Source: Aphrophora alni (taxonomy: Eukaryota > Arthropoda > Insecta > Hemiptera > Aphrophoridae). Taken from it: 64,000 bases of DNA. A program made the position numbers and the translations under genes. The stretch spans positions 104,393,291 through 104,457,290 of the forward strand of contig OY740773.1 of NCBI GenBank assembly GCA_963513935.1. The letters run 5' to 3'. Under the pieces are notes generated by a model. That model was not told where the DNA came from and did not search any database. It saw nothing but the letters and a program-made list of their open reading frames with translations. Positions 2,858 through 61,499 of this stretch are shown here, in pieces. Each line of letters begins with the position of its first letter. Positions within the stretch are counted from its first letter, which is position 1.

Positions 2858-3154
2858 TGACGAATTGTTTTGACTACAATAAAGTAAAAGATTTATTTAT
2901 TTAATTAAATTATAAATTATAGTAATATATATTATATTAAGTGACTTATCAGGAAAGGAAGCATTTAACAGAATCATATGAGTTGAAACCCAACTTTTAT
3001 TAGAATGTTTTACAAATAATAACCCTCAATTCAGTGTGTTTCTGTTTGTTTCAATCAAAGTTTTTAAAGTGTTAGGATTATTAAATTCAAATGTCCTCAA
3101 TTTAGTACATCGTGCAACTTCATCGCGACATTAATAAAGGATCGAACGATGCCA

Positions 3155-3199
3155 AGGATCTGATGATGACATGTCTGACGTGTCGAAACGGGTAATCCT
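3155..3199 (+). ncRNA. type I hammerhead ribozyme (PLE-type)
   Basis: All core elements are present in order. CTGATGA is at 3160-3166. Stem II pairs GACATG (3168-3173) with CGTGTC (3179-3184) around a 5-nt loop. GAAA is at 3185-3188, followed by a very short stem III (CGGG, 3189-3192) and a GUA cleavage triplet. Stem I pairs AGGAT (3155-3159) with ATCCT (3195-3199) and may extend past one bulged base (CAA with TTG). Predicted cleavage lies between 3194 and 3195. Minimal type I hammerheads with a tiny stem III are known from Penelope-like retroelements, where they sit in the terminal repeats; no PLE coding sequence is adjacent here. The pairing is seen directly; activity is not tested. Confidence 0.75.
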
Positions 3200-3209
3200 C
3201 TTGCGTTTC

Positions 3210-4415
3210 TAAGGATTGTTTGACGAATATTGAAAAGTAAATAACCTAATAACTATATATTCAAGGTCAACAAATCCAACTTTTTTTTTTGCAAAAAAGA
3301 CAGCACATGTCAAAAAATGTACAACTTTTGCATACAGTGATAATTTTGCCTTAAAAAGGAAATTATCAATGTCTTAAAAACTTTTTCTAGATGCCATTAT
3401 TTTTCTTTTAAATATATCATTCCAATGTTAAGTACTTAAATAGGGGTTATGTATAATTTTCTCCTTTTAAGTCTCCTTTAGAAAGGGGTGCAAGATGTTT
3501 AACCTCCACAAAAGTCATAAAACGTTCTGGAGGTCTCTCTTTGATATCTCAAACCATTTTAATTTCACTCATGTATTTACATTAAGTATATTTCCAGTCT
3601 GTACAATCTATACAGATAACGCGTCTTTCTGTTAGCTACAGTTTTGTTATTTTAATGTCTTTATATCGAGCTATGTAGTGTTTTATTGTTGTCTGTATTG
3701 ATTTCAAAACCAAAATACGATTTAAAACAGGTGAAATTCATTATTTATGATCGTATCATTGAAGATTTTCACAGCGAACATTGTAGAATAAAATATTAAA
3801 TAAACATTGAACACCCTTAAACCCTCAATCTTCAACATGAAAAACAATTCCAAGCTTTAAACATAAAACACTGGGAATAAAGTCACAAACTTATAAAAAG
3901 TGACTTCTGTTTAAGCGGAAAACTAGACAAGAGATATTATTCAAGACGGTTTTTTGCTGGGAAAGAATTTTATCTGAAATGAGAACGATGATTGAAGATA
4001 AAGAAGGAGGAAAATGAGATTTGTAATGAAGTGAAAACGGGAGTTAGAACAGAATCTACGATTGTCTATTACAACTTGGTAGGAAAAACTTTGTTGCGTT
4101 AGATTCAACCTTATTGTTTCATAAACCAAGGTAGATTATGTTTATTTCACTTTTATATCCTGTTTAAAGTAGTAAAAAAGTGTATAAATATAGACCTACA
4201 AGAAACAAAAGAACAACCGAACACTTGCAATTATTCAAACATACTTTCATACCACTCTCTCTTTATAGTGTGAAATTATGGTTGGGGTAGGTTTCTTCCT
4301 CTCTATTTATTCCCCCCATATTGTTCCTTTGTTTGTTGTAGGTCTATAGAAGTTTGAGGAAAAACTGTATACTAATTATCTATGAAACTATTTATACTAA
4401 AGACCGTAGGTACTT
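3210..4415. other. no recognisable feature
   Basis: AT-rich DNA without supported genes or repeats. The part from about 4150 may hold unreadable upstream remains of the PLE reverse transcriptase that follows. Confidence 0.35.
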
Positions 4416-4419
4416 GGTG

Positions 4420-4895
4420 GTATTCCATTTTATAAAATTGTGTGAAACAAAATTATTTTCAATTTCAAGAAAAATTTTATGCACAAATAGAGGGTTTGGC
4501 TATGGGGTCACCTCTATCTCCATTATTAAAATAATTTCTTTAAAAGTAAAAACAAGTTTCAATTTTAAAAAATCATTTATTGGTACAGATTTGTAGATGA
4601 TGTGATATGTTTGTTTGATGGTTCGGAACGCCAACTTCAATTGTTTTTTTTTTAATTTCTAATCTCTATTAATAAGGCGATACAATTTACTATGGATATA
4701 AGTCAGCAAAATCTAATTAGTTATTTAGACCTTAATATCAAAATTTAAAACGGTAAACATATTTTTAGTATTTATAGAGAGCCTACTTTTACAGACAACG
4801 TGATTCAAGCTAATTCTCAACATCCAGTTAACCATAAGCAAGCAGCTTTCTATACTATGTTGCATCGTTTAATTAATATTCCTATTCAAGGATAA
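4420..4895 (+). pseudogene. Penelope-like element reverse transcriptase fragment
   Basis: Reading across frames, the plus strand encodes NYFQFQEKFYAQIEGLAMGS followed by PLSPLL (about 4448-4530), then WYRFVDDVICLFDGSERQLQ (from 4581), then YLDLNIKI, FSIYREPTFTD and HPVNHKQAAFYTMLHRLI (about 4720-4880). These are the GLAMGSPLSP motif, the catalytic F-V-D-D box and the HPxxHKxAA-LLHRL region of PLE reverse transcriptases, in the family order. At least three frameshifts and several stops separate them, and no GIY-YIG endonuclease follows directly, so this is a decayed internal fragment. Retroviral and LINE enzymes do not carry this HKxAAxxxxxHRL stretch, which makes the PLE call firm. Confidence 0.85.
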
Positions 4896-6244: not shown

Positions 6245-6480
6245 TAATATTAGTAGAAATACAGTATAACAAACACACAGAACACAATTCTCACAAAAAA
6301 ATACACCTAAGTATCAGACGCGTTTAACGACAAGGTCGTCCTCTTCAGTGATACACGAGCTACACCAATCAAACTATAACTGATTATAGTTAGATTAAAC
6401 TGGTTAGTGAGTTATAGTTTGATTGGTGTACCTCGTGTATCAATGAAGAGGACGACCTTGTCGTTGAAACGCTTAGTAGA
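6245..6480. mobile_element. palindromic PLE terminal repeat with two decayed hammerheads
   Basis: Inverted arms of about 62 bp (6320-6381 and 6410-6472) surround a 28-nt loop. The outer left 75 bp match the region downstream of the hammerhead at 26730 in inverted form. The left arm carries a minus-strand hammerhead (6311-6354) in which the GAAA core has lost its G. The right arm carries a plus-strand copy (about 6438-6476) with ATGAAGA for CTGAAGA and a destroyed stem III. Both are therefore probably inactive. Confidence 0.65.
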
Positions 6481-6589
6481 AGTGTTGAACAACAATCGCG
6501 TGTTTTCACACATCATGAAAAGCTGTTTCTCAAGGGAGGTTCTGTACCACCATGTTAATTTAGGTACATATTACATAGGAAATACCATT

Positions 6590-6752: not shown

Positions 6753-6884
6753 TAGTTACTTTAACAATATTTGAGTAGTGAGATTCTTCTTTTAGTGTAA
6801 TCAAATAAAGCAGTAGTTGATCAAATTTTGTACTGTATTCTTCCTGTTGCTCTGATAGAGTGAAATTTCCGTTTTCCTTTACTA

Positions 6885-7490
6885 TAGAAGAATTTAATAC
6901 AATAATATATATTTCCACCTAAAAAGGTTACAAAGCGTCAATCATTAAAAAAATATACAACAAACAGGAAAGGAAAAACAAAATCAAAAATCTGAATAAG
7001 CTAATAAAAGACAAATTCTTGGTGTTCAATTATTTTAAGCAATTTGAACACATATTCAGAAATTTACTCCAAATTCAATAATATAAAATGACCTACAGAA
7101 CAACAAATAATCTAAAGAGTCTTATAACCCCCCCCCCCCCCAAGCACATTGATGAATTTGCAGAAACAGGAATATTGAACTATCATGCAATGACTGTCCA
7201 AGGAAATATATAGGACACACAGGAATATCCTTAAATAAAAATTTAAAGAAGACATTCCATCCGCCAAACAAATTGCACATTTAACAAAATCCGAATTTTA
7301 ATTTACCGAACACCTTATTCAAGCCGACCATGGATATTGTTGCATAAAAGACACACTTAAAATATTACACCGATGTAAAAAGGGCCAAATTATGAATTCT
7401 CTTGAGCAATTTTAAATATACAGGAAATATAAAATCGACAATAATATTTGATTGACTAAATTAGAAATGTCACTTTGATTACAACGTATT
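6885..7490 (+). pseudogene. PLE GIY-YIG endonuclease fragment, copy 1
   Basis: Homologous in inverted orientation to 10480-11070. Readable pieces include KGYKAS, HIDEF, and the Cys-rich start of the GIY-YIG domain (NYHAMTVQGNI in the wrong frame; the correct frame reads NDCPRKYIG). A run of 14 C at 7128-7141 lies inside the former coding region, just before the domain. Stops and frameshifts throughout; dead copy. Confidence 0.75.
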
Positions 7491-21300: not shown

Positions 21301-21745
21301 ATATTAATCCCAATGTACTACTCTAGTTGGATATATACCTTTATTCTTTTAGTCTTGGGTTAGGTTAGGTTAGGTTAATATTAATCCTAATGTACTCTAG
21401 TTGGATCTATACTTACCTTTATTCATTTAGTCTTGGGTTAGGTTAGGTTAGGTTAGGTTAATATTAATCCCAATGTACTACTCTAGTTGGATCTATACCT
21501 TTATTCATTTAGTCTTGGGTTAGGTTAGGTTAGGTGAGGTGAGGTTAGGTTAGGTTAGGTTAGGTTAGGTTAATATCAATCCTAATGTACTCTAGTTGGA
21601 TCTATACCTTTATTCATTTAGTCTTGGGTTAGATCCCTCTCTTTCAAGTTTATCATGACGCTATTACTCTGAGGCTATTAGAGTGTTCTAGATCTCTATA
21701 TTATGCTCTTTTATTTAAAATGATAATTGCGAGGTTTTCTCGCCT
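21301..21745 (-). repeat. tandem repeat A units with TTAGG telomere-like arrays
   Basis: Four head-to-tail units of about 70-110 bp, each with CTCTAGTTGGAT...CTTTATTC...TTAGTCTTGGGTTAG. In the first three the terminal GGGTTAG runs on as (TTAGG)n: about 3 units at 21358-21377, 4 at 21436-21459 and about 10, with two TGAGG variants, at 21519-21570. The fourth unit keeps the ancestral GGGTTAGATCCCTC and continues as a normal repeat A end to 21745. TTAGG is the insect telomere repeat, but here it most likely arose by slippage inside the element. Confidence 0.8.
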
Positions 21746-26045: not shown

Positions 26046-26689
26046 TTATTATGTTATCCCAACTTTTCAATGAGCTAACTATTTCACACTGATTGTTTAA
26101 CTAATTCACTTCATAACAGATAGTCTGACTTATTGGCTGACTAATAAACTAAAACATTGTCATAACCATCATTGAATGAAACTTGCACGCCGGGTTTTCT
26201 TGTCACAGGAGTTGAAGTACATAAAGTACAGTCCACAATAAAAGCAAATCTCTGATATTTCCATTTTAACTGAGGAGTGTAACCGACTTTTCTGTACAGA
26301 TTTATTTCTACCGGATACATTATATAGCTTTATATATAGGACTGAGTATTTGAACCGTCAACACATGGTAACATAAAATAACAATAAATCTCAGCCTTTT
26401 GTTTACTTTTATACCTCAGTTTGACAATTACTCTGTCCGTTGTTGTACATTGATACATTGTATGGTGGGACAATTTGTGTTATTGTCAGTGAAATGTAGA
26501 CTTTGAATTGAGACTTTTAATTAGTTTTGTGATGTTTTGGTATTATTTTATATTGTTTGGAGTATTAAATATTATTTTTAATTGATTCCTTTAAGGGCGG
26601 AGCAGCAATTAATGATTGGTTTTAGTTTCCAATGGTCTCCAGTCTTTGGAATCGTTCAAATTACATTATTACTACATATCGTTAATATA

Positions 26690-26845
26690 GTTATATATCA
26701 AGAGTTATAGTTTGATTGGTGTAGCTCGTGTATCACTGAAGAGGACGACCTTGTCGTTGAAACGCGTCTGATACTTAGGCGTATTTTTTGTGAGCATTGT
26801 GTTCTGTGTGTTTGTTATACTGTTTATTACTACATGCCCAGGAAG
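26690..26845 (+). mobile_element. PLE terminal repeat, single arm
   Basis: Same unit that forms the palindrome at 6245-6480, here as one arm: AGTTATAGTTTGATTGGTGT, the hammerhead, then TTTTTTGTGAG, TTGTGTTCTGTGTGTTTGTT. Carries the intact ribozyme described next. No PLE coding region is adjacent. Confidence 0.7.
26730..26774 (+). ncRNA. type I hammerhead ribozyme, intact
   Basis: Stem I pairs GTATCA (26730-26735) with TGATAC (26769-26774), six Watson-Crick pairs. Core CTGAAGA (26736-26742) fits the hammerhead consensus CUGANGA. Stem II pairs GACGAC (26744-26749) with GTCGTT (26753-26758) around a CTT loop. GAAA is at 26759-26762, stem III is reduced to the self-complementary CGCG (26763-26766), and the cleavage triplet is GUC with cutting expected after 26768. 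Nothing of the core is missing. A self-complementary stem III suggests action as a dimer, as proposed for PLE hammerheads. Related decayed copies lie at 6311-6354, 29874-29923 and in the palindromes near 40.0 and 55.4 kb. Confidence 0.85.
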
Positions 26846-27214
26846 TTTGGTAATAGTCCAAAATTTCAACTTCCGTTTTTTACTAAACTTTGCGTTTTAT
26901 TACCTCCAGACACCGAAAAAGTTACACTCGACAAACCGTCCATTAGACGTCGTTCTTTGTAGCTGTCATAAACTTAAAATAAAATCATGAAATTTATTTA
27001 GTGTGTCCTTGTAGAACTCAATTTAAATCCAGTCAATCGAATTGCAAATTTCAAAAAGGCAAATTTTAAACAGTTTTTTATTCATGTCTCATGGTTTTTA
27101 ATGTTATAACCCACTAAATTTGATTGAAATAAGCTAATTTCACAAAATGTAATGGTACCAACTTCACCTCTCTATAATACAAAATAGCAAAGCTATTGTC
27201 AGAAATGTAGGGCC

Positions 27215-28103: not shown

Positions 28104-28549
28104 TATAGCTAGGCTGGTGAATGTTCATTTTTTTTCTTGTCATTTAAAAGTCTCTTAATTTCTAAAATTTCCAAAACATTTAATTTTCTACTTTTTACGT
28201 TAACATGTAGAATTTCAAAATTAACATTAGAATAAAAATCTGTCAATGCATGATTTTTTAAATGGTTAGAAAAACTAGAATCATTATAACCTAACTGCCA
28301 ACTCCTTTCATGCTCACTTAACCTACACTTAAAACTACGGCCTGTTTGGCCAACATAAACAGCATTACAAATACTACATGTCAGTTTGTACACACCACTT
28401 TTTTGCATTTTTTCTATTTTATCTTTGGAATTTACTAACATCGTTCCTAAATTTTGTTTACAATAATAAGCTGGTTTATAGCTTGTAATTTTACATGCAC
28501 AAACGTTTACATTTACAGCTGGTTTACATGTAATTTTGAAATTGTACAT
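28104..28549 (-). CDS. PLE GIY-YIG endonuclease domain, partial open frame
   Basis: An uninterrupted 146-codon minus-strand frame carries the C-terminal endonuclease of a Penelope-like element. GVY is at residues 52-54, Cys58 and Cys61 form a Cys-x2-Cys pair, YVG is at 65-67, the catalytic Arg at 71 in QTGRSFK, then LSEH (His80) and SNHLKNH (His96, His100), matching the CCHH finger plus GIY-YIG layout of PLE proteins. These nucleases nick target DNA for reverse transcription. The reverse transcriptase is absent and the last residues (after IKRLL) run into unrelated sequence, so the protein is truncated at both ends. Of the PLE fragments here this is the least decayed. Confidence 0.88.
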
Positions 28550-28607
28550 GTTAACGTAAAAAGTAGAAAATTAAATGTTTTGGAAATTTTAGAAATTAAG
28601 AGACTTT
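28147..28607. repeat. head-to-head inverted junction of two PLE copies
   Basis: 28147-28223 and 28531-28607 are inverted repeats of about 77 bp. The right arm starts a second, plus-strand PLE 3' end, so two copies of the same element meet with their 5' sides. Confidence 0.85.
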
Positions 28608-28960
28608 TGTGTAATGATGATAATCTAGTTTTAAATGACCAAACGGAATTTTTGTCATTTTCTCCTTTACTTCAACCTCTATTCAAGGTTGGTTAATACC
28701 AGTGTGAATGACCTGTGGGGTTTCCCCCGGGTCTTTGTGCTTTGTTTGTTAACGGGAATTTCCTGCCTTTCTCAACCTTTTATAATAGTTATGGTGTGCT
28801 TTGTATTTAGTCTTTAGTAAAAGCCTCGTCAATGCCGTAACTGGCGAAACCATGGTCGGCTAGACCAAATAAATTATAGAATTTTACAAAAGAAAATTTG
28901 TATTTTATTTGTTAAAATGGAATTCTATCAAGTACCGTCGGTCATCAGTGTTAACAATAT
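28538..28960 (+). pseudogene. PLE C-terminus and 3' terminal region
   Basis: Reads FEIVHVNVKSRKLNVLEILE-IKRLL as in the minus copy, then continues CNDDNLVLNDQTEFLSFSPL-LQPLF, giving the real C-terminus the other copy lacks. Downstream at 28834-28865 is a hammerhead-like structure (GCC/GGC stem, GAAA, palindrome CCATGG, UC, GGCTAGAC), but the expected CTGANGA is replaced by TCGTCAA, so cleavage is doubtful. The tail to 28955 matches 573-640; a more decayed relative lies at 56184-56262. Confidence 0.75.
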
Positions 28961-29795: not shown

Positions 29796-29799
29796 TATA

Positions 29800-29950
29800 T
29801 TTAATAAGTGTTGAGTTTGACTTGTCAGATAATTTAGACTCGAACATAAGATCTCACATAATTTATGTTTACTTAATATAACGCGTTTCAACGACAAAGT
29901 CGCCATCCTCAGTGATACATGAGCTACAATAACAAAACTAGCACTGCGTC
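29800..29950 (-). mobile_element. PLE terminal repeat, second subfamily, single arm
   Basis: Contains GACTTGTCAGATAAT, AATTTATGTTTACTTAATA, then a minus-strand hammerhead-like unit (29874-29923): CTGAGGA core, GGCGAC/GTCGTT stem II, GAAA, CGCG, GUU. Stem I does not pair, so activity is doubtful. The same subfamily forms the palindromes at 39888-40140 and 55279-55570. Confidence 0.65.
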
Positions 29951-34570: not shown

Positions 34571-35509
34571 TAATATAGATAAGAATTACCTTAGTAGGTC
34601 CGTCTTGTGACTTCAATTTATATCTGGTTTTGCTATGACATGTTTCAAAGTTCAAGACTTCATCATCAGATACATGTAGATTAATTAATTCATTCACACG
34701 ATGAATGCGTCACACATCAAATGTTAAAACACAAAACACAAACACAAACACAATTAAAATAAATATTCCCGTTCGGCACCGGTGCGCATTATCCTATGTC
34801 TGGTGGAACACTGTCGTTGTTAGGAATAAACCCTCTGATGGTTATCTCTATTGAGTCTAGATAAATGCTTGAGAGCTGTGTCGTATAGATAGTGTGAGTT
34901 AAAAGATAGCTGGTCGTTTAAAATTTCATCTGGTTTATTTTTGAACGCTTTATATATCTCAAACTCTTCTTGAGCGTTCATTAATCTTCCCTTTGTACAC
35001 ACTTGCAATGCCTCCACACTGGAATGGAAAACAAACACATCCCAGATAATTTCCATTCCAGTGTGGAGGCATTGCAAGTGTGTACAAAGGGAAGATTAAT
35101 GAACGCTCAAGAAGAGTTTGAGATATATAAAGCGTTCAAAAATAAACCAGATGAAATTTTAAACGACCAGCTATCTTTTAACTCACACTATCTATACGAC
35201 ACAGCTCTCAAGCATTTATCTAGACTCAATAGAGATAACCATCAGAGGGTTTATTCCTAACAACGACAGTGTTCCACCAGACATAGGATAATGCGCACCG
35301 GTGCCGAACGGGAATATTTATTTTAATTGTGTTTGTGTTTGTGTTTTGTGTTTTAACATTTGATGTGTGACGCATTCATCGTGTGAATGAATTAATTAAT
35401 CTACATGTATCTGATGATGAAGTCTTGAACTTTGAAACATGTCATAGCAAAACCAGATATAAATTGAAGTCACAAGACGGACCTACTAAGGTAATTCTTA
35501 TCTATATTA
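34571..35509. mobile_element. PLE palindrome, 2 x 460 bp arms, 19-nt spacer
   Basis: 34571-35030 and 35050-35509 are inverted copies with paired coordinates always summing to 70080, so no net indel over 460 bp. Each arm encodes the same PLE endonuclease C-terminus (minus 35018-34820, plus 35062-35260): SSVEALQVCTKGRLMNAQEE, then FEIYKAFKNKPDEILNDQLS and LYDTALKHLSRLNRD, a stop and the 3' region. Each 3' region carries a hammerhead-like core (plus 35411-35443: CTGATGA, GAAGT/ACTTT stem, GAAA, CATG, UC); its stem I has only three sure pairs. The two copies are head-to-head with 3' ends outward. Identical arms imply recent origin or ongoing conversion. Confidence 0.92.
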
Positions 35510-37185: not shown

Positions 37186-37612
37186 TATTATCCATGTACA
37201 GTTTATTTTATTATATTTGTTTTAAGTTTACAGATTTTATAAAACAGTTTCCCTACTTGTTACAGTTTGCTGTGCTTTAAACTGTATTTAAGCTATCAAA
37301 TAAAATAGTAAACTACAATTCGGCAAACATAACAGTTCAGTCAAAAATATTCCCGAATATCCCACAAACATTGTATAAATATAATATGTATTCATATCTT
37401 TACACTAGATTTCCGGTGTGAAAGCTGAAATGTATTTCCAGTTCAGTAGAAAATCCTTGAAGCGAAATACGTTACGAGCTAATGTCAATAAACAAATCCA
37501 GATTTGAAAACATTTTTAGAGATTCAGGAACGATATATTTTAAAACAAATATTCGTTGTTAATAATGTTACAAAAACAAGTCGATGAGCGGCATGATGGT
37601 ACTTGCCCAGCT

Positions 37613-38775
37613 GCAAAGAAATTTATAGATACATCATTCAGCCTAGCTAGCTGTAATGAACCTTATAGATACATAATTCAGCCTAGCTAGCTGTAATGAA
37701 CCTTATAGATACATCATTCAGCCTAGCTAGCTGTAATGAACCTTATAGATACATAATTTAGTCTATCTAGCTGTAATGAACCTTATAGATACATCATTTA
37801 GCCTATCTAGCTGTAATGAACCTTATAGATACATCATTCAGCCTAGCTAGCTGTAATGAACCTTATAGATACATCATTGAGCCATGCTAGCTGTAATGAA
37901 CCTTATAGATACATCATTTAGCCTAGCTCTAAATAACCTTAAAGATACATCATTCAACCTAGCTAGCTGTAATGAACCTTATAGATACATCATTTAGCCT
38001 AGCTCTAAATAACCTTAAAGATACATCATTTAGCCTATCTAGCTGTAATGAACCTTATAGATACATCATTTAGCCTATCTAGCTGTAATGAACCTTATAG
38101 ATACATCATTCAGTCTAGCTAGCTGTAATGACCCTTATAGATACATAATTCAGCCTAGCTAGCTGTAATGAACCTTATAGATACATCATTCAGCCTAGCT
38201 AGCTGTAATGAACCTTATAGATACATCATTTAGCCTAGCTCTAAATAACCTTAAAGATACATCATTCAGCCTAGCTAGCTGTAATGAACCTTATAGATAC
38301 ATCATTCAGCCTAGCTAGCTGTAATGAACCTTATAGATACATCATTTAGCCTAGCTCTAAATAACCTTAAAGATACATCATTCAGCCTAGCTAGCTGTAA
38401 TGAACCTTATAGATACATCATTCAGCCTAGCTAGCTGTAATGAACCTTATAGATACATCATTCAGTCTAGCTAGCTCTAATGAACCTTATAGATACATCA
38501 TTCAGCCTAACTAGCTGCAAAGAACCTTATAGATACATCATTTAGCCTAGCTTTAAAGAACCTTAAAGATACATCATTTAGCCTAGCTAGCTTCAAAGAA
38601 CCTTATAGATACATTTTTATCCTAGCTCTAAAGAACCTTAAAGATACATCATTCAGCCTACCTGCAAAGAACCTTATAGATACATCATTCAGCCTAGCTA
38701 GCTGTAATGAACCTTATAGATACATCATTTAGCCTAACTCTAATGAATCTTAAAGAATGCTGCAAAGAACCTTAT
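37613..38775 (+). repeat. satellite-like tandem array, 40-bp unit, about 29 copies
   Basis: Unit: CCTTATAGATACATCATTCA followed by GCCTAGCTAGCTGTAATGAA. A shorter 36-bp variant (GCCTAGCTCTAAATAACC, with CTTAAAGAT) is interspersed at intervals, showing some higher-order order (37922-38035, 38228-38262, 38341-38376). The last 250 bp are more diverged. AGCTAGCT palindromes recur in each unit. The left flank (37573-37602) resembles 5841-5870. No coding. Confidence 0.95.
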
Positions 38776-38789
38776 GTTTAAATTTCATA

Positions 38790-39885
38790 ATGATTGGGAG
38801 ACGAGTGTGGCCGAACTTCTTAATAAACATACTAAGATAGAAACTTACAGAGGAAATTGTAAATGAAACAGATAACACATAAACCGTTTCGCTCCGGCTG
38901 TAACACTAGAGGTTTTAATTTCACTTTTTTCAAAACAATATTAGAGTAGTACAGGTAATTTAAATTTTCTTTATACCTTAAATTAACATTTAAAATTTTT
39001 TTTCTCTATCCTAATGTTCTTTCAAATGGAATGTTAAAGGATTTTAAATATAAATCAACATGTGTAAAAAGATATTTTTCAATTCTAATATTGTTTGTCA
39101 ACATCTTTAACGACAGTTTAAAGCAATGTTTTACAAATTTAGTAAAAATATCATACTTCAAAGTTTAGAGTGAATAAAATCTAATTTTATTTTATACTTG
39201 TCTTTAAGGTGAAAAACTTTTCTATCTTAATGACGTTATATAAAAAAAAAAAAGGAAAAAAAAGGAAATATTACAAAATACAAAATACAAAATAGCCTCT
39301 AATACTTTAATAGCGTCAGGGGGAAATTCATAAATAGTTTGTTATTTTTTTAAAATAAATGATTACAGCAAACACAGAATGATTGATTGTATTAAACAGT
39401 TCAATGTTGACATTGTTTCAGCAATACATTCACTGAATGACCTAATTGTGACGTAGAGACATCAAGTTCAATACAATTACCGCAGTTTGACATGTTGTAA
39501 TCTAACCCTAGATTAGTGTCCTGTTATATGCTACTTTAAGTTTACAGGAAGTTTGTAACGTTTATTTAATAACTTTACACAGATTCAACTTGTCAACGTC
39601 TGTAAACTTGCTGCGTTAAATATTGTTGTATCTGTGCTTGGTAATTTATTAATACAATGGATTTATGTTAACGTATTCAATCATTTCTCACCCAGTATAA
39701 GAAGTATGGGGTGGGTTAGATAATCGCTAAATACTTCACCCTCTGTTTTTCTTCCTGATCTTCTCGTTTCAAGGTCTCACGATACCGAAAATATTATCGG
39801 CAACCCGTCTGTCCGTCGTCGTTGTCGTCTAAACCTAAAAACGACAGCGACCACGAAACATAATATAGAAGCATGAAATTTGATA
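38790..39885. other. mostly unassigned; repeat A remnant at 39236-39320
   Basis: AT-rich. 39236-39320 keeps only the A-rich linker and CTCTAATACTTTAATAGCGT-CAGG of repeat A. Confidence 0.4.
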
Positions 39886-39887
39886 TA

Positions 39888-40140
39888 TATAAATATTGAG
39901 CTTGACTTGTCAGATAATATTAGATAGAGTAAAACTACAACACAAAATCTCACAAAAATTACGTTTACTTAATCAAACGGGTTTCAACGAGAAAATCGCC
40001 ATCCTCAGTGATACATGAGCTACAATAACTAAACTACAACAGTTATAGTATGTATCACTGAGGATGGCGCTTTATCGTTGAAACGCGTTAAGTAAACGTA
40101 ATTTTTGTGAGATCTTGTGTTCGAGTTTTATTTTATATAA
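39888..40140. mobile_element. palindromic PLE terminal repeat, second subfamily
   Basis: Arms about 39928-40019 and 40049-40133 surround a short loop. Both contain CTGAGGATGGCG, GAAAC and GCGTT: minus-strand and plus-strand hammerhead relics facing outward. One arm reads CCCG for CGCG; stem II pairing is damaged in both. Confidence 0.7.
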
Positions 40141-52526: not shown

Positions 52527-53129
52527 GGTGTCGTGGGGTTGGCTCGACATATTGGCCACCCCAGTTAATAGCAATCACTTCCTGGAAATGTGAACGGTTC
52601 AGGTACCAGTCGGGCGGGTATAATTAAAATCAATAAAGATCAAATAGAAAATAAATATCACTATTTAGGTTAGGTTAGGTTAAGATTTTTTCCATACAAA
52701 TTCTAACTTTTAATTTGGTAATACTAACCATTAAATATGTACGTATAAACACTCTAGGTGCAGTATCATTTAACAATTTTGAATTAAAATAAATTCATAC
52801 AAACTATAACAAACTAGAGATTTAGATTGAACATATTTAAAATTGTTAAAAGGAATAAAAATATTGTCTTTAGATAGTGTTTATGTCAATCTTCACAGAA
52901 GTATGGTCATCACAATCATAAAGCCCATCGACAATATGACATATCATCGAATTGGATACTTAAATAAATTTCAACAGTGCCTTATGAGTTCAGAATTGTT
53001 ATGATTGGTTTTGTGCTTTCTGTTAATTTTAAAGGATACCAGGTTAGCCATTTAAGCAGGAGTTTGAACAGATGACCCTAGTTCCCCAAAGTGTCGAGCC
53101 AACCCCACGTCGAGCCAACCCCACGTAAT
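52527..53129 (-). mobile_element. Foldback/MULE-like element U, copy 1
   Basis: 603 bp flanked by imperfect 9-bp target duplications ATGACCGAG (52518-52526) and ATAACCGAG (53130-53138). Removing it restores the repeat A hairpin. Left terminus contains CGTGGGGTTGGCTCGACA (52532-52549); the right terminus has the inverse, twice in tandem (about 53094-53125). The interior is AT-rich, non-coding, and holds a short (TTAGG)3 at 52664-52680. 9-bp duplications and tandemly repeated inverted ends are features of Foldback and Mutator-like elements. Non-autonomous. Confidence 0.8.
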
Positions 53130-53260
53130 ATAACCGAGAGGTTTTGAACCTTTAAACAAAACTCCCCTCTCACGTTATTACACTATTAAAAGAATTCTAT
53201 TTTATGTTCTTGCCTTCTTCTTTTAAGACAACGAAGACAAAAAAGTTTTTCAACTTTAAA
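53130..53260 (-). repeat. repeat A, remainder plus partial second copy
   Basis: Continuation of the split hairpin, then a short second minus-strand copy (GTTATTACACTATTAAAAG, ACAACGAAGACAAAAAAG). Confidence 0.55.
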
Positions 53261-53504
53261 CAATAAAAAAAACAGACATGAAATTAATTTTATTCACATT
53301 TAAATAAATAAAACTTTATTAAACCAGTATTTCATTAGTTTCAAATTTTGACTTATTTCAAAATTAATATTTTCAGTTTGTATTACATTGTAGTACAAAG
53401 GATATTTGTAAAGCATTTAGTTTTATTATATTAGAGGGACAAAATAGACTGCTAGACACTTAATAATCATACACATGTACAAACAGGTTTTTATGAGGAA
53501 AGCA

Positions 53505-53640
53505 GAAAACAAATGTTACACGCTTCAAATCTTTCGTAGTTTCTCTCAACTCAAAGGATTTAACCACGCTTTGTTACTTACTTAAAGCTGTAAACACACA
53601 TGGACGGGTACGCGAACATATTTACAAAAGTACTCTTTGT
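53505..53640 (+). repeat. dispersed repeat D, copy 1
   Basis: TTACACGCTTC and TTTCTCTCAACTCAAAG are shared with the minus strand of 61880-62060. Confidence 0.35.
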
Positions 53641-53768
53641 AAATAAAATGATATTTAACGTTCCAAATAAAAACCATTTCCGGAATTTACTTCAGTGGTG
53701 TAAATAATGTGTAAACGAGTGGTCTATAGAAGTAGAAAATATTTTAGACACTTCCTGTTGATTACATG

Positions 53769-54557
53769 ATTACGTGGGGTTGTCTCGACGTGGGGTTGGC
53801 TCGACGTGGGGTTGGCTCGACGTGGGGTTGGCTCGACGTGGGGTTGGCTCGACGTGGGGTTGGCTCGACGTGGGGTTGGCTCGACGTGGGGTTGGCTCGA
53901 CGTGGGGTTAGCTCGACACTTGTATACCGTGGGGTTAGCTCGACACTTTGGGGAACTAGGGTCATCTGTTCAAACTTCTGTCTAATTGGTTAACCTGGTA
54001 TCCTTTAAAATTAACAGAAAGCACAATTCCAATCGTAACTATTCTGAACTCATAAGGCACTGTTGAAGTTTATTTAAGTATCCAATTCGATGATATGTCA
54101 TATTGTCGATGGGCTTTATGATTGCGATGACCATACTTCTGTGAAGATTGACTAAGAGATACATAAACACTATCTAAAGACAATATCTTTATTCCTTTTA
54201 ACAATTTAAATATGTTGAATCTAATTCTCTAGTTTGTTCGAATTGATTTTAATTCAAAATTGTTAAATGATACTGTACCTAGAGGGTTTATATGTACATA
54301 TTTAATCATTAGTATTACCAAATTAAAAGTTAGAATTTGTTGGGGGAAAATCTTAACCTTACCTAACGTAAATAGTGATATTTATTTTCTATTTGATCTT
54401 TATTGATTTTAATTATACCCGCCCGACTGGTACCTGATCCGTTCACATTTCCAAGAAGTGATTGCTATTGACTGGGGCGGCCAATATGTCGAGCCAACCC
54501 CACTTCGAGCCAACCCCACGTCGAGCTAACTCCACGTCGAGCCAACCCCACGACACT
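53769..54557 (+). mobile_element. Foldback/MULE-like element U, copy 2, expanded minisatellite end
   Basis: 789 bp flanked by perfect 9-bp target duplications GATTACATG (53760-53768, 54558-54566). Body homologous to copy 1 in inverted orientation. The left end has nine contiguous 16-bp units CGTGGGGTTGGCTCGA (53773-53916) and a tenth after an 11-nt interruption (53928-53943); the right end has four inverse units (54489-54552). Unit number thus differs 1, 2, 4 and 10 between the four ends of the two copies. Open frames on both strands here are products of the 16-bp repeat. Confidence 0.88.
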
Positions 54558-55278: not shown

Positions 55279-55570
55279 ATAAATAATAAATAAATATTGA
55301 ACTTGACTTGTGAGATAATACTAGATAGAATAAAACTCGAACAGTTCTCACAAAAATGACGTTTATTTAATCAAACGCGTTCCAACGAACTCGCCATCCT
55401 CAGTGATACATGAGCTACAATAACTAGACTATAACTAAGTTAATACATGAACTACTAAGTTATTGTAGTTCATGTATTACTGAGAATGACAACGTTGTCG
55501 TTGAAACGCGTTTGATTGAAGTAAACGTAAATTTTGTGACAACTTGTATTCGAGTTTTATTCTATCAGAG
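55279..55570. mobile_element. palindromic PLE terminal repeat, second subfamily
   Basis: Arms about 55324-55425 and 55458-55566. Outward-facing hammerhead relics: left arm (minus) CTGAGGATGGCGAG ... GGAACGCGTT, right arm (plus) CTGAGAATGACAACGTTGTC, GTTGAAACGCGTTTGAT. The right one has a good stem II (ACAAC/GTTGT) but CTGAGAA for CTGANGA. Confidence 0.7.
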
Positions 55571-58600: not shown

Positions 58601-59650
58601 GTTTTATTTTTGTACAAGTGATAAGTAAAAGAAGAATAGAATTGCTGCATTATTGGGCGTTGTCGTAGTTATGTCTAAAATACAACATTTAAAACATTGT
58701 AAATTCAAAAGATACAAAAAATGATAAGCCACTATGGTTATAAAGCCGGTGTAAGTTGGAATAAATTGAGCTTTCAGAAAGTCTAATACATTTACATCAA
58801 ATCAAATCGATTATAAAATTTTTTTAAACATTTTTTCCGGTTTCTGAAAAAAGAGTACCTGAAAAAGGGAGTCCGCACCCCCTTAAAAATACATTATATT
58901 TATAAATATAATACTGTAAGTTGTACGAAGGATAATTTTGTCTATTATTATATTTAAAAATATAATAACGTAATGTAATTGTAAACAAATTATACTAGGT
59001 GTTAAATATTAAACACTGTGAAACGAATTCGTTTGAACGTAGAAAAATGAGTTTAATCCTAACCTAAACTAACCTAACCTAACCTAACCTAATCAATTAG
59101 GTAAACACAAATTTGAACAAAAGAAATGTGCAGCCGTCTTTAAACGTATAATGAAGTGTTTTCCAACAACTAAAAAACAATAACAAATGTACTGTAGTTT
59201 CCCCCAATTTAAATATATTCACCAATATATACTTTACCATATCTTTTATAATGTATTCCTGTATTCATCTGGAAAGAATCTTTGATACAAGATGTCAGCT
59301 CATGAATAATTGACTAGAACAATACATTCAAACATCTCAGTTTTATTTCAGAATTTTACTGTGCAAAGTTAAACCTAACAGATGTTGCGTCCCTTGTAGA
59401 AAGGTTTTGTTTGGGTTGGTGACGGTTTTATGAATTGAATAGCATTCGAAACAAATAGTGCAAAACATTTTCCCTTAAGGCTAAAATGGAATTTTAACTG
59501 ATTTCAGAAGCTTTAACCTGAATTCATATTTTTAAATTTTTTTATATACATGAAATAAAACCTTTCTTTGTTTCAAAAACATCAAAGAAATTATTTTTCT
59601 TTGAATTGGTTTTAAGTATATAAATTTCTCGGATATCCTGGCCTTAAAAC
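58600..59650. other. unassigned; (CTAAC)n at 59063-59090
   Basis: AT-rich. CCTAACCTAAACTAACCTAA-CCTAACC at 59058-59090 is a short TTAGG-type array in reverse orientation. Confidence 0.5.
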
Positions 59651-60245: not shown

Positions 60246-61345
60246 CTTTTTCTATTTCTGTTAATTACTTTTTCTGAAAAAAAGGAATGGTACTTACCCA
60301 GCCCTATCATACAATGTAATACAAGCAGATCCTCTAAATTTAATGTCAAAAAGTTGTTTTCTTGGGCCTTGTATGAATTGTTAAATTGTATTGGTAGATC
60401 AAGGGGTCTTATCCAGTGGCGTAATTTCATTTTTAAACAACTGTTTTTTTGATGGGCCAAAAAGATGAAAATCGCTAGAGCCAAGTCCGTACTATATGAA
60501 GGGTGGACCAACAGTTGAAAACCAAAGTTTTAAAGGGCAAAAGACTGTGGTTTTTGGCCTATGTGGTCGAGCATAATCCTGAAGCAAAATCACGCCTTTT
60601 GAAATTTTACCACCTTTTTTGGATTTGATTTTTTGCTTCAATAAACACAGTAGCTGTCACTATTTATTGTTTGACCTTTAAGTTAGAAGTCAATCAAAAT
60701 TTGACCTTCCGTATCCCAGAAAATCTACATCATAACCATTCCTGCAGACATCAGAGTTTTGAACTTTTTTGCTGTAGGAGATGAAGGATGTTTCCACACC
60801 AAACTTTGTCTTTTAATTTCTGGTTTAAAATGATGGACCCATGTTTCATCAACGGTTATTATTTGCTTAAGAAATGAGTTTCCTTCTTCTTCATAACGTT
60901 CCAAATTCTTCTGGAAAATTTTCAAACGATTGTTTGTGTGGATGCTGGTCAATTGACGTGGAACCCAGCGAGCACAGACTTTTCAAAAGTTTAAAGAATC
61001 GTGGATGATTTAATATGCCGAGCCATGACTTACTTTTAACTCACTTGCAATTTCATCAACTTTAATTCGTCGATTATTGAGAATCATTTGTTTAACCGCT
61101 TCAATATTATCATTAGTCTTTGAAGTGGAAGGCCTACCAGGACGTTGTTCATCAGACAGATTAATCCTACCACTATTACAGCGATCAATCCATTCGTAGA
61201 TCTTGCTTCTACTTAAACAACTCTCTCTATTTGCTGCTGCATTCGACGAATAATCTCTGCTGGTTTCACACCTTCTGAGGAAACGTATCACTTCTCGCAT
61301 TTCTTTCTTGGTGCAATCAGACAAAGAACAACTCATTTCATACAG
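60235..61345 (-). pseudogene. mariner transposase pseudogene
   Basis: Minus-strand open frames 61363-61010 and 60952-60725 plus shorter pieces give nearly the whole mariner transposase. N-terminal helix-turn-helix part: IYEWIDRCNSGRINLSDEQR, PGRPSTSKT and KVDEIASELKVSHGSAY. First catalytic Asp: ITVDETWVHHFKPEIKRQS. Then AKKFKTLMSAGMVMM, stop, FWDTEGQILIDF. Second Asp: VILLQDYARPHRPKTT (DNARPH with N to Y). Third region: HPSYSTDLALA and FHLFGPSKK. C-terminus: RKQLFDIK and CITLYD. This is the D,D34D order. At least two stops and three frameshifts inactivate it. Terminal inverted repeats were not identified. Confidence 0.93.
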
Positions 61346-61499
61346 TCTTTTAAACACAAACACAAATAGCTAACAATGAAACAATAATTTCAATGAACAG
61401 CTGATGGACGTTATGAGTTGTAATAAAACAATCAGTGCTACCATACATGTGATTAGGAGCGAAATCAAAATTTCCCTTTAATTTTTGACTTTCCCTCTT

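What the first reader, a model, noticed from the sequence alone, without database searches (positions are those of the whole stretch)
26730..26774. Structurally complete hammerhead ribozyme in a lone PLE terminal repeat
Stem I (6 pairs), CTGAAGA, stem II, GAAA, CGCG and GUC are all in place. The unit stands alone, without PLE coding sequence, so it may be a non-autonomous, ribozyme-only retroelement. Hammerheads in PLEs are known; this family and its solo spread may not be described.
Basis: partly seen in the sequence, partly recalled or inferred. Interest (0 to 1): 0.75.

Follow-up and report, generated by a model that had tools for sequence, protein, structure and literature searches.

The report
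Solo Penelope terminal repeat with ribozyme
A short stretch of animal DNA carries a complete-looking self-cutting RNA motif (a hammerhead ribozyme) inside a 146-base insertion that looks like a lone end-piece left by a Penelope-type jumping gene, which is a recognised kind of genomic debris rather than a new kind of element.

Summary
The motif is real and at the stated place: 6-bp stem I, CUGAAGA, 6-bp stem II, GAA, a 2-bp palindromic stem III (ACGCGU), cut site after C26768. One hit this strong appeared in 2,500 shuffled windows. Its family has 8 copies at 5 loci here. Two hammerheads unrelated to it by BLAST, but of the same build, lie at 3160 and 34669/35411; the latter is joined to Penelope-like (PLE) endonuclease coding sequence.

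The unit is a 146-bp insertion (26678-26823) between 12-bp target duplications. Three of the 5 loci are head-to-head palindromes; two of these have a 31-44 nt longer 'tail' on one arm. Most 3' ends lie about 75-83 or 109-119 nt past the core, near the internal RT start of the anole PLE. This is the published anatomy of solo and inverted Penelope pseudo-LTRs.

Best reading: a solo PLE pseudo-LTR made by internally initiated reverse transcription; a new member of a known kind. No copy of this family is joined to PLE coding sequence here. Cleavage is undemonstrated, and folds with native flanks disfavour it. The genome-wide count could not be run.

The parts
26666..26677 (.). left target-site duplication TTATTACTACAT
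   Evidence: 12-bp exact repeat flanking the unit; 0.3% of 2,000 random flank pairs from the window reach 12 bp; flank ranges were chosen after seeing the homology limits
26678..26823 (+). solo pseudo-LTR unit (146 bp); its 3' end GTTATACTGT is shared with locus 6259-6472
   Evidence: TSD boundaries; homology to 6253-6398 minus strand, 91% over 153 bp
26730..26774 (+). hammerhead motif, PLE type: 6-bp stem I, CUGAAGA, extra G, 6-bp stem II, GAA, ACGCGU, C^
26768..26768 (+). predicted cleavage after this C (GUC^U)
   Evidence: position of C17 in the hammerhead core; not shown by experiment
26824..26835 (.). right target-site duplication TTATTACTACAT
6250..6481 (.). related head-to-head double unit 6259-6472 with 9-bp TSD TTAGTAGAA; minus arm lacks G12, plus arm has C3 to A and ends inside stem III
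   Evidence: a 9-bp repeat is reached by 1.65% of random flank pairs
29797..29940 (-). related single unit (subfamily 2), no stem I next to the core, longer 'tail' end; no TSD found
39883..40140 (.). related head-to-head double unit; minus arm with tail, plus arm without; no TSD above chance
55283..55566 (.). related head-to-head double unit; minus arm with tail, plus arm without; both cores mutated; no TSD above chance
34571..35509 (.). perfect 460-bp inverted repeat with 19-nt loop; each arm holds the C-terminus of a PLE endonuclease reading frame, then non-coding sequence, a second hammerhead family (34631-34675 minus, 35405-35449 plus) and a tail
3154..3200 (+). third hammerhead family, same build, 1.5 kb upstream of a PLE fragment on the same strand (4686-4871)
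   Evidence: that the two belong to one element is inference
28109..28570 (-). PLE GIY-YIG endonuclease fragment
   Evidence: Pfam PF01541 E=0.0016, below its curated cut-off; 16 homologues, best E=5.3e-23, 3 of the 16 with precomputed PF01541

Best explanation
The unit is a solo Penelope-like pseudo-LTR (pLTR) carrying the minimal, dimer-type hammerhead of that superfamily. Proposed steps: (1) a PLE transcript carrying this pLTR binds the PLE RT/GIY-YIG protein (inferred); (2) the protein cuts an AT-rich target and starts reverse transcription inside the RNA, about 75-83 or 109-119 nt past the hammerhead core (inferred from the 3' ends of the units plus published PLE biochemistry); (3) synthesis runs back through the hammerhead and ends 28-58 nt upstream of it, here leaving 146 bp between 12-bp target duplications (the product is seen in the sequence; why it ends there is unknown); (4) when both target strands prime, or the cDNA primes itself, head-to-head double units result (product seen at 3 of 5 loci; mechanism inferred). 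The hammerhead would cleave tandem or dimeric PLE RNA after C26768 through a double hammerhead with the palindromic ACGCGU stem III (inferred, not shown). In this solo copy it is most likely a passenger.
For: Complete motif, rare by chance. Changes on both sides in 6 of 14 pairs over 10 aligned copies, against 1-3 pairs when the partner is slid. Two BLAST-unrelated hammerheads of the same build in the window, one just downstream of PLE endonuclease coding sequence. TSDs of 12 and 9 bp at two loci that share their 3' end. 3' ends at C3+82 to +90 (4 arms) and C3+116 to +126 (3 arms), i.e. tail absent or present, beside an RT start 111-118 bp into the ORF and an optional 30-40 bp tail in PMC11167929. 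Head-to-head pLTRs, a 31-bp tail on one of the inverted pLTRs, TSDs of 8-10 bp and solo pLTRs in PMC3846280. Double hammerhead of the bare 45-mer -25.1 kcal/mol against a dimer optimum of -26.1 containing the same three helices.
Against: No copy of this family is joined to PLE coding sequence in the window, so the parent PLE is not identified. TSDs at 2 of 5 loci only; the best repeats at the other three are at chance level. Not every arm end fits: the plus arm at 6 kb ends inside the hammerhead, one alignment ends the 40 kb plus arm at C3+69 rather than +82/83, and the local alignment of the finding with its 6 kb relative runs 6-10 nt past the TSD-defined ends. With 5 or more native bases on each side, predicted monomer and dimer ensembles give stem I a probability near 0; the 56-nt stretch is no more stable than shuffles (z -1.26). 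Of 5 motifs folded as dimers only this one comes near its optimum as a double hammerhead. Rfam gives no hammerhead match. The 5' ends cluster (28-58 nt upstream of C3), which random truncation would not predict.
Confidence: 0.68

Rival explanations
1. A dedicated non-autonomous, ribozyme-only short element (SINE-like, an interspersed retrozyme) with its own 5' and 3' ends, multiplied in trans by PLE enzymes.
For: At all 5 loci the unit contains no coding sequence; 5' ends cluster 28-58 nt upstream of C3 and most 3' ends fall near two positions; the finding is TSD-flanked. Small metazoan retrozymes of about 170-400 nt are known (PMC7229834).
Against: Animal retrozymes are described as tandem repeats giving circular RNA; copies here are single or head-to-head. 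Tail on one arm and inverted arrangement are those of PLE pLTRs. Sequence alone cannot separate a short template from early termination on a PLE transcript.
Confidence: 0.18
2. A solo pLTR left by recombination between two direct pLTRs of a full PLE, or by deletion, rather than inserted as a short unit.
For: PMC3846280 proposes recombination or deletion for several solo pLTRs without TSDs; pLTR-pLTR recombination would also leave the original TSD in place (established for LTR elements, recalled).
Against: The unit is shorter than the 181-218 bp pLTRs of that paper; related loci at 6, 40 and 55 kb are head-to-head pairs that such recombination does not make.
Confidence: 0.08
3. A tandem-repeat retrozyme of the circular-RNA class, of which one monomer remains.
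For: Type I topology and near the lower end of the size range; retrozymes and PLEs co-occur in animals (PMC7229834).
Against: Only one match to the 39-base core at up to 3 mismatches in the window; Tandem Repeats Finder lists no array at 26.7 kb.
Confidence: 0.03
4. A chance look-alike, or a relic with no history as a ribozyme.
For: Fold prediction in context disfavours the motif; 6 of the 11 motifs fail the scan for core plus stems.
Against: Shuffle controls, covariation with slid controls, and two BLAST-unrelated motifs of the same build.
Confidence: 0.03

Closest known systems
Minimal hammerheads in pLTRs of Penelope-like elements (Cervera and De la Pena 2014; Lunse, Weinberg and Breaker 2017: not held; known here from citing passages in PMC7761336 and from recall)
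   Same: Type I topology, diminished stem III, dimer use proposed, dispersed copies in non-coding DNA.
   Different: Sequence family not found in the two collections searched (viral contigs; plasmids), neither of which is an animal collection; one extra nucleotide before stem II in all three families of this window.
Solo and inverted Penelope pLTRs of Adineta vaga (PMC3846280, passages)
   Same: Head-to-head inverted pLTRs with palindromic junctions, a 31-bp tail on one of the inverted pLTRs, TSDs of 8-10 bp, solo pLTRs.
   Different: Arms here are shorter (about 60-160 bp against 181-218 bp), and the finding has a TSD whereas several of the rotifer solo pLTRs had none.
PAc, a Poseidon-clade PLE of Anolis (PMC11167929, main text read)
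   Same: Insertions end at internal RT starts, one 111-118 bp past the start of stem II; 30-40 bp tail; AT-rich targets.
   Different: No ORF attached to this family here; no ATG at the start of stem II in the finding; parent protein unknown.
Metazoan non-LTR retrozymes (PMC7229834: abstract, introduction, one results section and discussion read)
   Same: Small, non-coding, type I hammerhead, non-autonomous.
   Different: Not tandem; no evidence of circular RNA; PLE-type rather than classical hammerhead.

Membership tests
Hammerhead ribozyme (type I) | Conserved core CUGANGA / GAAA / UH with three stems in type I order | tested here: met
   with one extra nucleotide between A9 and stem II
Hammerhead ribozyme (type I) | Covariation in stems I and II | tested here: met
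   6 of 14 pairs change on both sides (slid controls 1-3; 1 of 500 shuffles as high); the count of further pair types is not exceptional (49 of 500). Stem I pairs in only 64.8% of cells. Eight of the ten rows are one family, and the structure was taken from one member
Hammerhead ribozyme (type I) | Match to Rfam hammerhead models | tested here: not met
   for this locus, for 3100-3260: no hammerhead match; stem III may be too short for those models (inference)
Hammerhead ribozyme (type I) | Self-cleavage | not testable with these tools
   folding in native context is unfavourable
Penelope-like element pLTR | Minimal hammerhead lacking a full stem III | tested here: met
   2-bp stem III, palindromic ACGCGU
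Penelope-like element pLTR | Extra tail on one of a pair of inverted pLTRs | tested here: met
   40 kb and 55 kb loci: arm ends differ by 41-44 and 31-34 nt; not seen at the 6 kb locus, whose plus arm ends inside the hammerhead; not applicable to the finding, which is single
Penelope-like element pLTR | Short TSD | tested here: inconclusive
   12 bp (the finding) and 9 bp at 2 of 5 loci; chance-level repeats at the other 3
Penelope-like element pLTR | Physical link to RT/GIY-YIG coding sequence | tested here: not met
   no joined copy of this family in the window; nearest same-strand PLE pieces are 0.4 kb from the 6 kb locus (outside its TSD) and 1.3 kb from the 29 kb unit. Met for the 34571-35509 family. 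Whole genome not searchable
Metazoan retrozyme | Tandem repeats with a hammerhead in each | tested here: not met
   single or head-to-head in this window
Metazoan retrozyme | Circular RNA expression | not testable with these tools
   no transcript data

The most novel reading that the evidence does not exclude
Short ribozyme-only units of roughly 140-160 bp are a self-standing class of PLE-moved parasite with set ends: the 3' end set by the PLE internal RT start and the 5' end by the end of a short template RNA, integrated singly or as head-to-head double-ribozyme palindromes when both target strands prime. They would be interspersed, non-circular counterparts of retrozymes and direct fossils of internally initiated, two-sided PLE reverse transcription.
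Probability: 0.18. Interest if true: 0.5.

Novelty: new member of a known kind. Interest (0 to 1): 0.3.

Why it matters
Taken plainly it adds one family to the known link between PLEs and minimal hammerheads. The useful part is structural: copies with and without a tail, at two distances from the hammerhead, in single and head-to-head form, look like the genomic footprint expected from the internal RT start measured in vitro for a lizard PLE. If the genome-wide set confirms two sharp 3' ends and a common 5' end, it would test whether internal initiation on both strands explains the old puzzle of inverted Penelope repeats, and why animal genomes carry so many scattered solo hammerheads.

Tried and rejected
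Rfam cmscan of the whole window at gathering score gave no match at all, and of 26600-26900 at E up to 10 none; on 3100-3260 at E up to 10 it gave 5 matches, none of them a hammerhead and all far below their gathering scores. A pattern scan of viral contigs found nothing and blastn of the 146-bp unit against plasmids found nothing, as expected for animal DNA. Pfam on the 153-aa GIY-YIG ORF gave nothing at E 1e-3 and PF01541 at E 0.0016, below its cut-off. A 147-aa piece at 4.3-4.9 kb that I read by eye as RT-like had no Pfam match at E up to 1, so I claim no RT domain there, only the tblastn match at 4686-4871. The idea that the 29912-minus copy encodes an ORF start at the hammerhead, as in PAc, was dropped: two relatives (40 kb minus, 55 kb minus) read TGA in that frame. 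A TATA-based transcription start as cause of the common 5' edge was considered from the flank of the 29 kb copy and left as unproven. Snap-back as the maker of the 40 kb and 55 kb palindromes is neither shown nor excluded: their two arms are not each other's closest relatives.

Full report
What is there. The 45 bases at 26730-26774 read GTATCA-CTGAAGA-G-GACGAC-CTT-GTCGTT-GAA-ACGCGT-C-TGATAC. They form a type I hammerhead: 6-bp stem I, intact core, 6-bp stem II, a predicted cut after C26768. Stem III is only two pairs around a 2-nt loop, but ACGCGU is self-complementary, so two molecules can complete each other. One extra base (G26743) separates the core from stem II. A scan asking for core plus all three stems found 5 motifs in the window; the same scan found 31 hits in 2,500 dinucleotide shuffles, and at the strength of this motif 1 real and 1 in 2,500 shuffles. 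In an earlier run of 300 shuffles, 5 hits, one equalled its 12 pairs in stems I and II together. A looser sequence pattern gave 4 matches against 0.09 expected.

The family. Iterated nhmmer found 8 copies at 5 loci: 26704+ (the finding), 29845-, and three head-to-head pairs 6285-/6411+, 39941-/40032+ and 55343-/55458+. They split into two subfamilies: over 98-103 aligned positions the finding is 98% identical to 6285- and 61-72% identical to the 29, 40 and 55 kb arms. Two further motifs share the build (extra base before stem II, GAAAC-NN-GU): 3160+, and 34669-/35411+, which are identical to each other. BLAST at E up to 1e-3, with 1.5 kb either side of 3160+, the finding, 29912- and 40058+ as queries, connects neither to the family. 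A covariance model built from 10 of these 11 motifs finds all 11 at E 1.2e-10 or better and nothing else below E 0.28; this shows the gap to background, not independent support, since 10 are its training set and the 11th is a twin of one. On the 10-row alignment 80.3% of cells pair and 6 of 14 pairs have a change on both sides; sliding the partner by 1-3 columns gives 17-45% and 1-3 pairs. Against: stem I pairs in only 64.8% of cells, its two outermost pairs in 2 of 9 and 3 of 8; further pair types are not exceptional (49 of 500 shuffles as high); eight of the ten rows are one family; the 3160 row is out of register in stem II. Only 5 of the 11 motifs pass the scan. The other 6 have a lost G12 (6285-), C3 to A and truncation (6411+), no stem I at the core (29845-, 40032+), GGAA for GAAA (55343-) or a changed G8 (55458+). 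So most copies have decayed.

The insertion. TTATTACTACAT stands at 26666-26677 and 26824-26835, leaving a 146-bp insert. A repeat that long appears in 0.3% of 2,000 random flank pairs; I chose the flank ranges after seeing the homology limits. The 6 kb locus has TTAGTAGAA at 6250-6258 and 6473-6481 (1.65% of random pairs), and its minus arm ends at the same 3' sequence, GTTATACTGT, within 2 nt. The other three loci show only chance-level repeats.

The link to Penelope-like elements. 34571-35509 is a perfect 460-bp inverted repeat with a 19-nt loop. Each arm reads ...VEALQVCTKGRLMNAQEEFEIYKAFKNKPDEILNDQLSFNSHYLYDTAL... and carries the hammerhead about 0.15 kb downstream of the stop codon. That protein stretch matches P0006, one of 16 homologues of the window's GIY-YIG fragment at 28109-28570 (E 3e-9 against the window); a search with it in the large protein collection found no candidate. 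Further PLE fragments lie at 4686-4871+, 6866-7448+, 10486-10801-, 28115-28528- and 28523-28675+. None is joined to the finding's own family. The nearest on the same strand are 0.4 kb from the 6 kb locus, outside its TSD, and 1.3 kb from the 29 kb unit. Membership of the finding is therefore inferred from anatomy, not shown by linkage.

Anatomy compared with published PLEs. I read the main text of PMC11167929: in the anole PLE the hammerhead sits at the pLTR-ORF junction, the ORF begins at stem II, RT starts mainly 111-118 bp into the ORF, and a 30-40 bp 'tail' corresponds to the sequence between two RT start sites; both target strands are cut and extended, with no apparent difference in RT start. 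Measured from C3, arm ends here are +82/83 (40 kb plus; +69 in one alignment), +87 (55 kb plus), +88 (finding, by TSD) and +90 (6 kb minus, by TSD), against +116 (29 kb), +118-121 (55 kb minus) and +124-126 (40 kb minus). The local alignment of the finding with 6 kb minus runs on to +98/+96, into the TSDs. The eighth arm, 6 kb plus, ends inside the hammerhead. Subtracting the 7-nt core gives about 75-83 and 109-119. The paper does not say in the text I read on which side of 111-118 its second start lies, so the match is to one start and to the tail length, not to both positions. In passages of PMC3846280, rotifer Penelope elements have head-to-head pLTRs with palindromic junctions (read there as self-priming), a 31-bp tail on one of the inverted pLTRs, TSDs of 8-10 bp, and solo pLTRs, several of which are put down to recombination or deletion. 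The match in orientation, tail and TSD is close. The 5' ends here lie 28-58 nt upstream of C3, shorter than the pLTRs of that paper, and they cluster; I have no proven cause for that.

Does it cleave? Unknown. For the bare 45-mer, stems I and II have mean pair probability 0.89 and 0.88, and a double hammerhead scores -25.1 kcal/mol against a dimer optimum of -26.1 that contains the same three helices. The four other motifs folded the same way fall 11-17 kcal/mol short of their dimer optima. With 5 or more native bases on each side stem I of the finding falls to about 0 in monomer and dimer, and the 56-nt stretch is not unusually stable (z -1.26). The anole hammerhead needed its protein to cleave, and its mutants did not affect insertion in vitro, so this does not settle the matter, but it counts against autonomous activity in this context.

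What is known. [quoted passage not shown] PMC6155905 (passages) says all available PLE sequences display such motifs; its reference list names a 2001 paper on an extra nucleotide in a viroid hammerhead core (title only seen). PMC7229834 (abstract, introduction, one results section, discussion) describes small non-autonomous animal retrozymes as tandem repeats with circular RNA. The two primary papers on PLE hammerheads (2014, 2017) are not held; what I say of them is recalled or second-hand. My eight answered literature searches did not turn up a description of this sequence family; none of them searched by sequence, so this is weak evidence.

Host. The window carries TTAGG-type arrays at 21436-21460, 21518-21572 and 59058-59092, which suggests an arthropod; this is inference. 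The assembly could not be searched.

Verdict. A real, rare-by-chance and structurally complete PLE-type hammerhead in a TSD-flanked solo unit. It is a new member of a known kind; the two-position 3' ends and the head-to-head pairs are the part worth a genome-wide follow-up.

Noticed in passing
34571-35509: Perfect 460-bp inverted repeat with a 19-nt loop holding two copies of a PLE 3' end plus hammerhead; no mismatch between the arms suggests a recent event.
   Followed up: partly
28146-28223 and 28531-28608: A PLE endonuclease fragment with a 78-bp inverted duplicate (98.7%) in front of it; the plus-strand piece reads on into a different C-terminus (28523-28675), so two PLE pieces are joined head to head.
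   Followed up: partly
28819-28866 +: Hammerhead-like remnant by eye (GCC...GGC stem, GAAACCATGGTC) after the plus-strand PLE C-terminus, core CTGANGA not recognisable, followed by AATAAA; the model did not report it.
   Followed up: no
21301-21572 and 59058-59092: Internal TTAGG-type arrays, the first within an 82-bp tandem repeat; telomere-like repeats inside a transposon-rich stretch.
   Followed up: no
37609-38736: Tandem array, about 29 copies of a 40-bp unit, 1.1 kb from the 40 kb hammerhead pair.
   Followed up: no
53093-54552: Several arrays of a 16-bp unit GTCGAGCCAACCCCAC in both orientations.
   Followed up: no
61010-61369 -: ORF with HTH_32 (E 4.9e-6) and HTH_29 matches, both below the curated cut-offs; looks like the N-terminal part of a mariner-type transposase (name recalled).
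   Followed up: no
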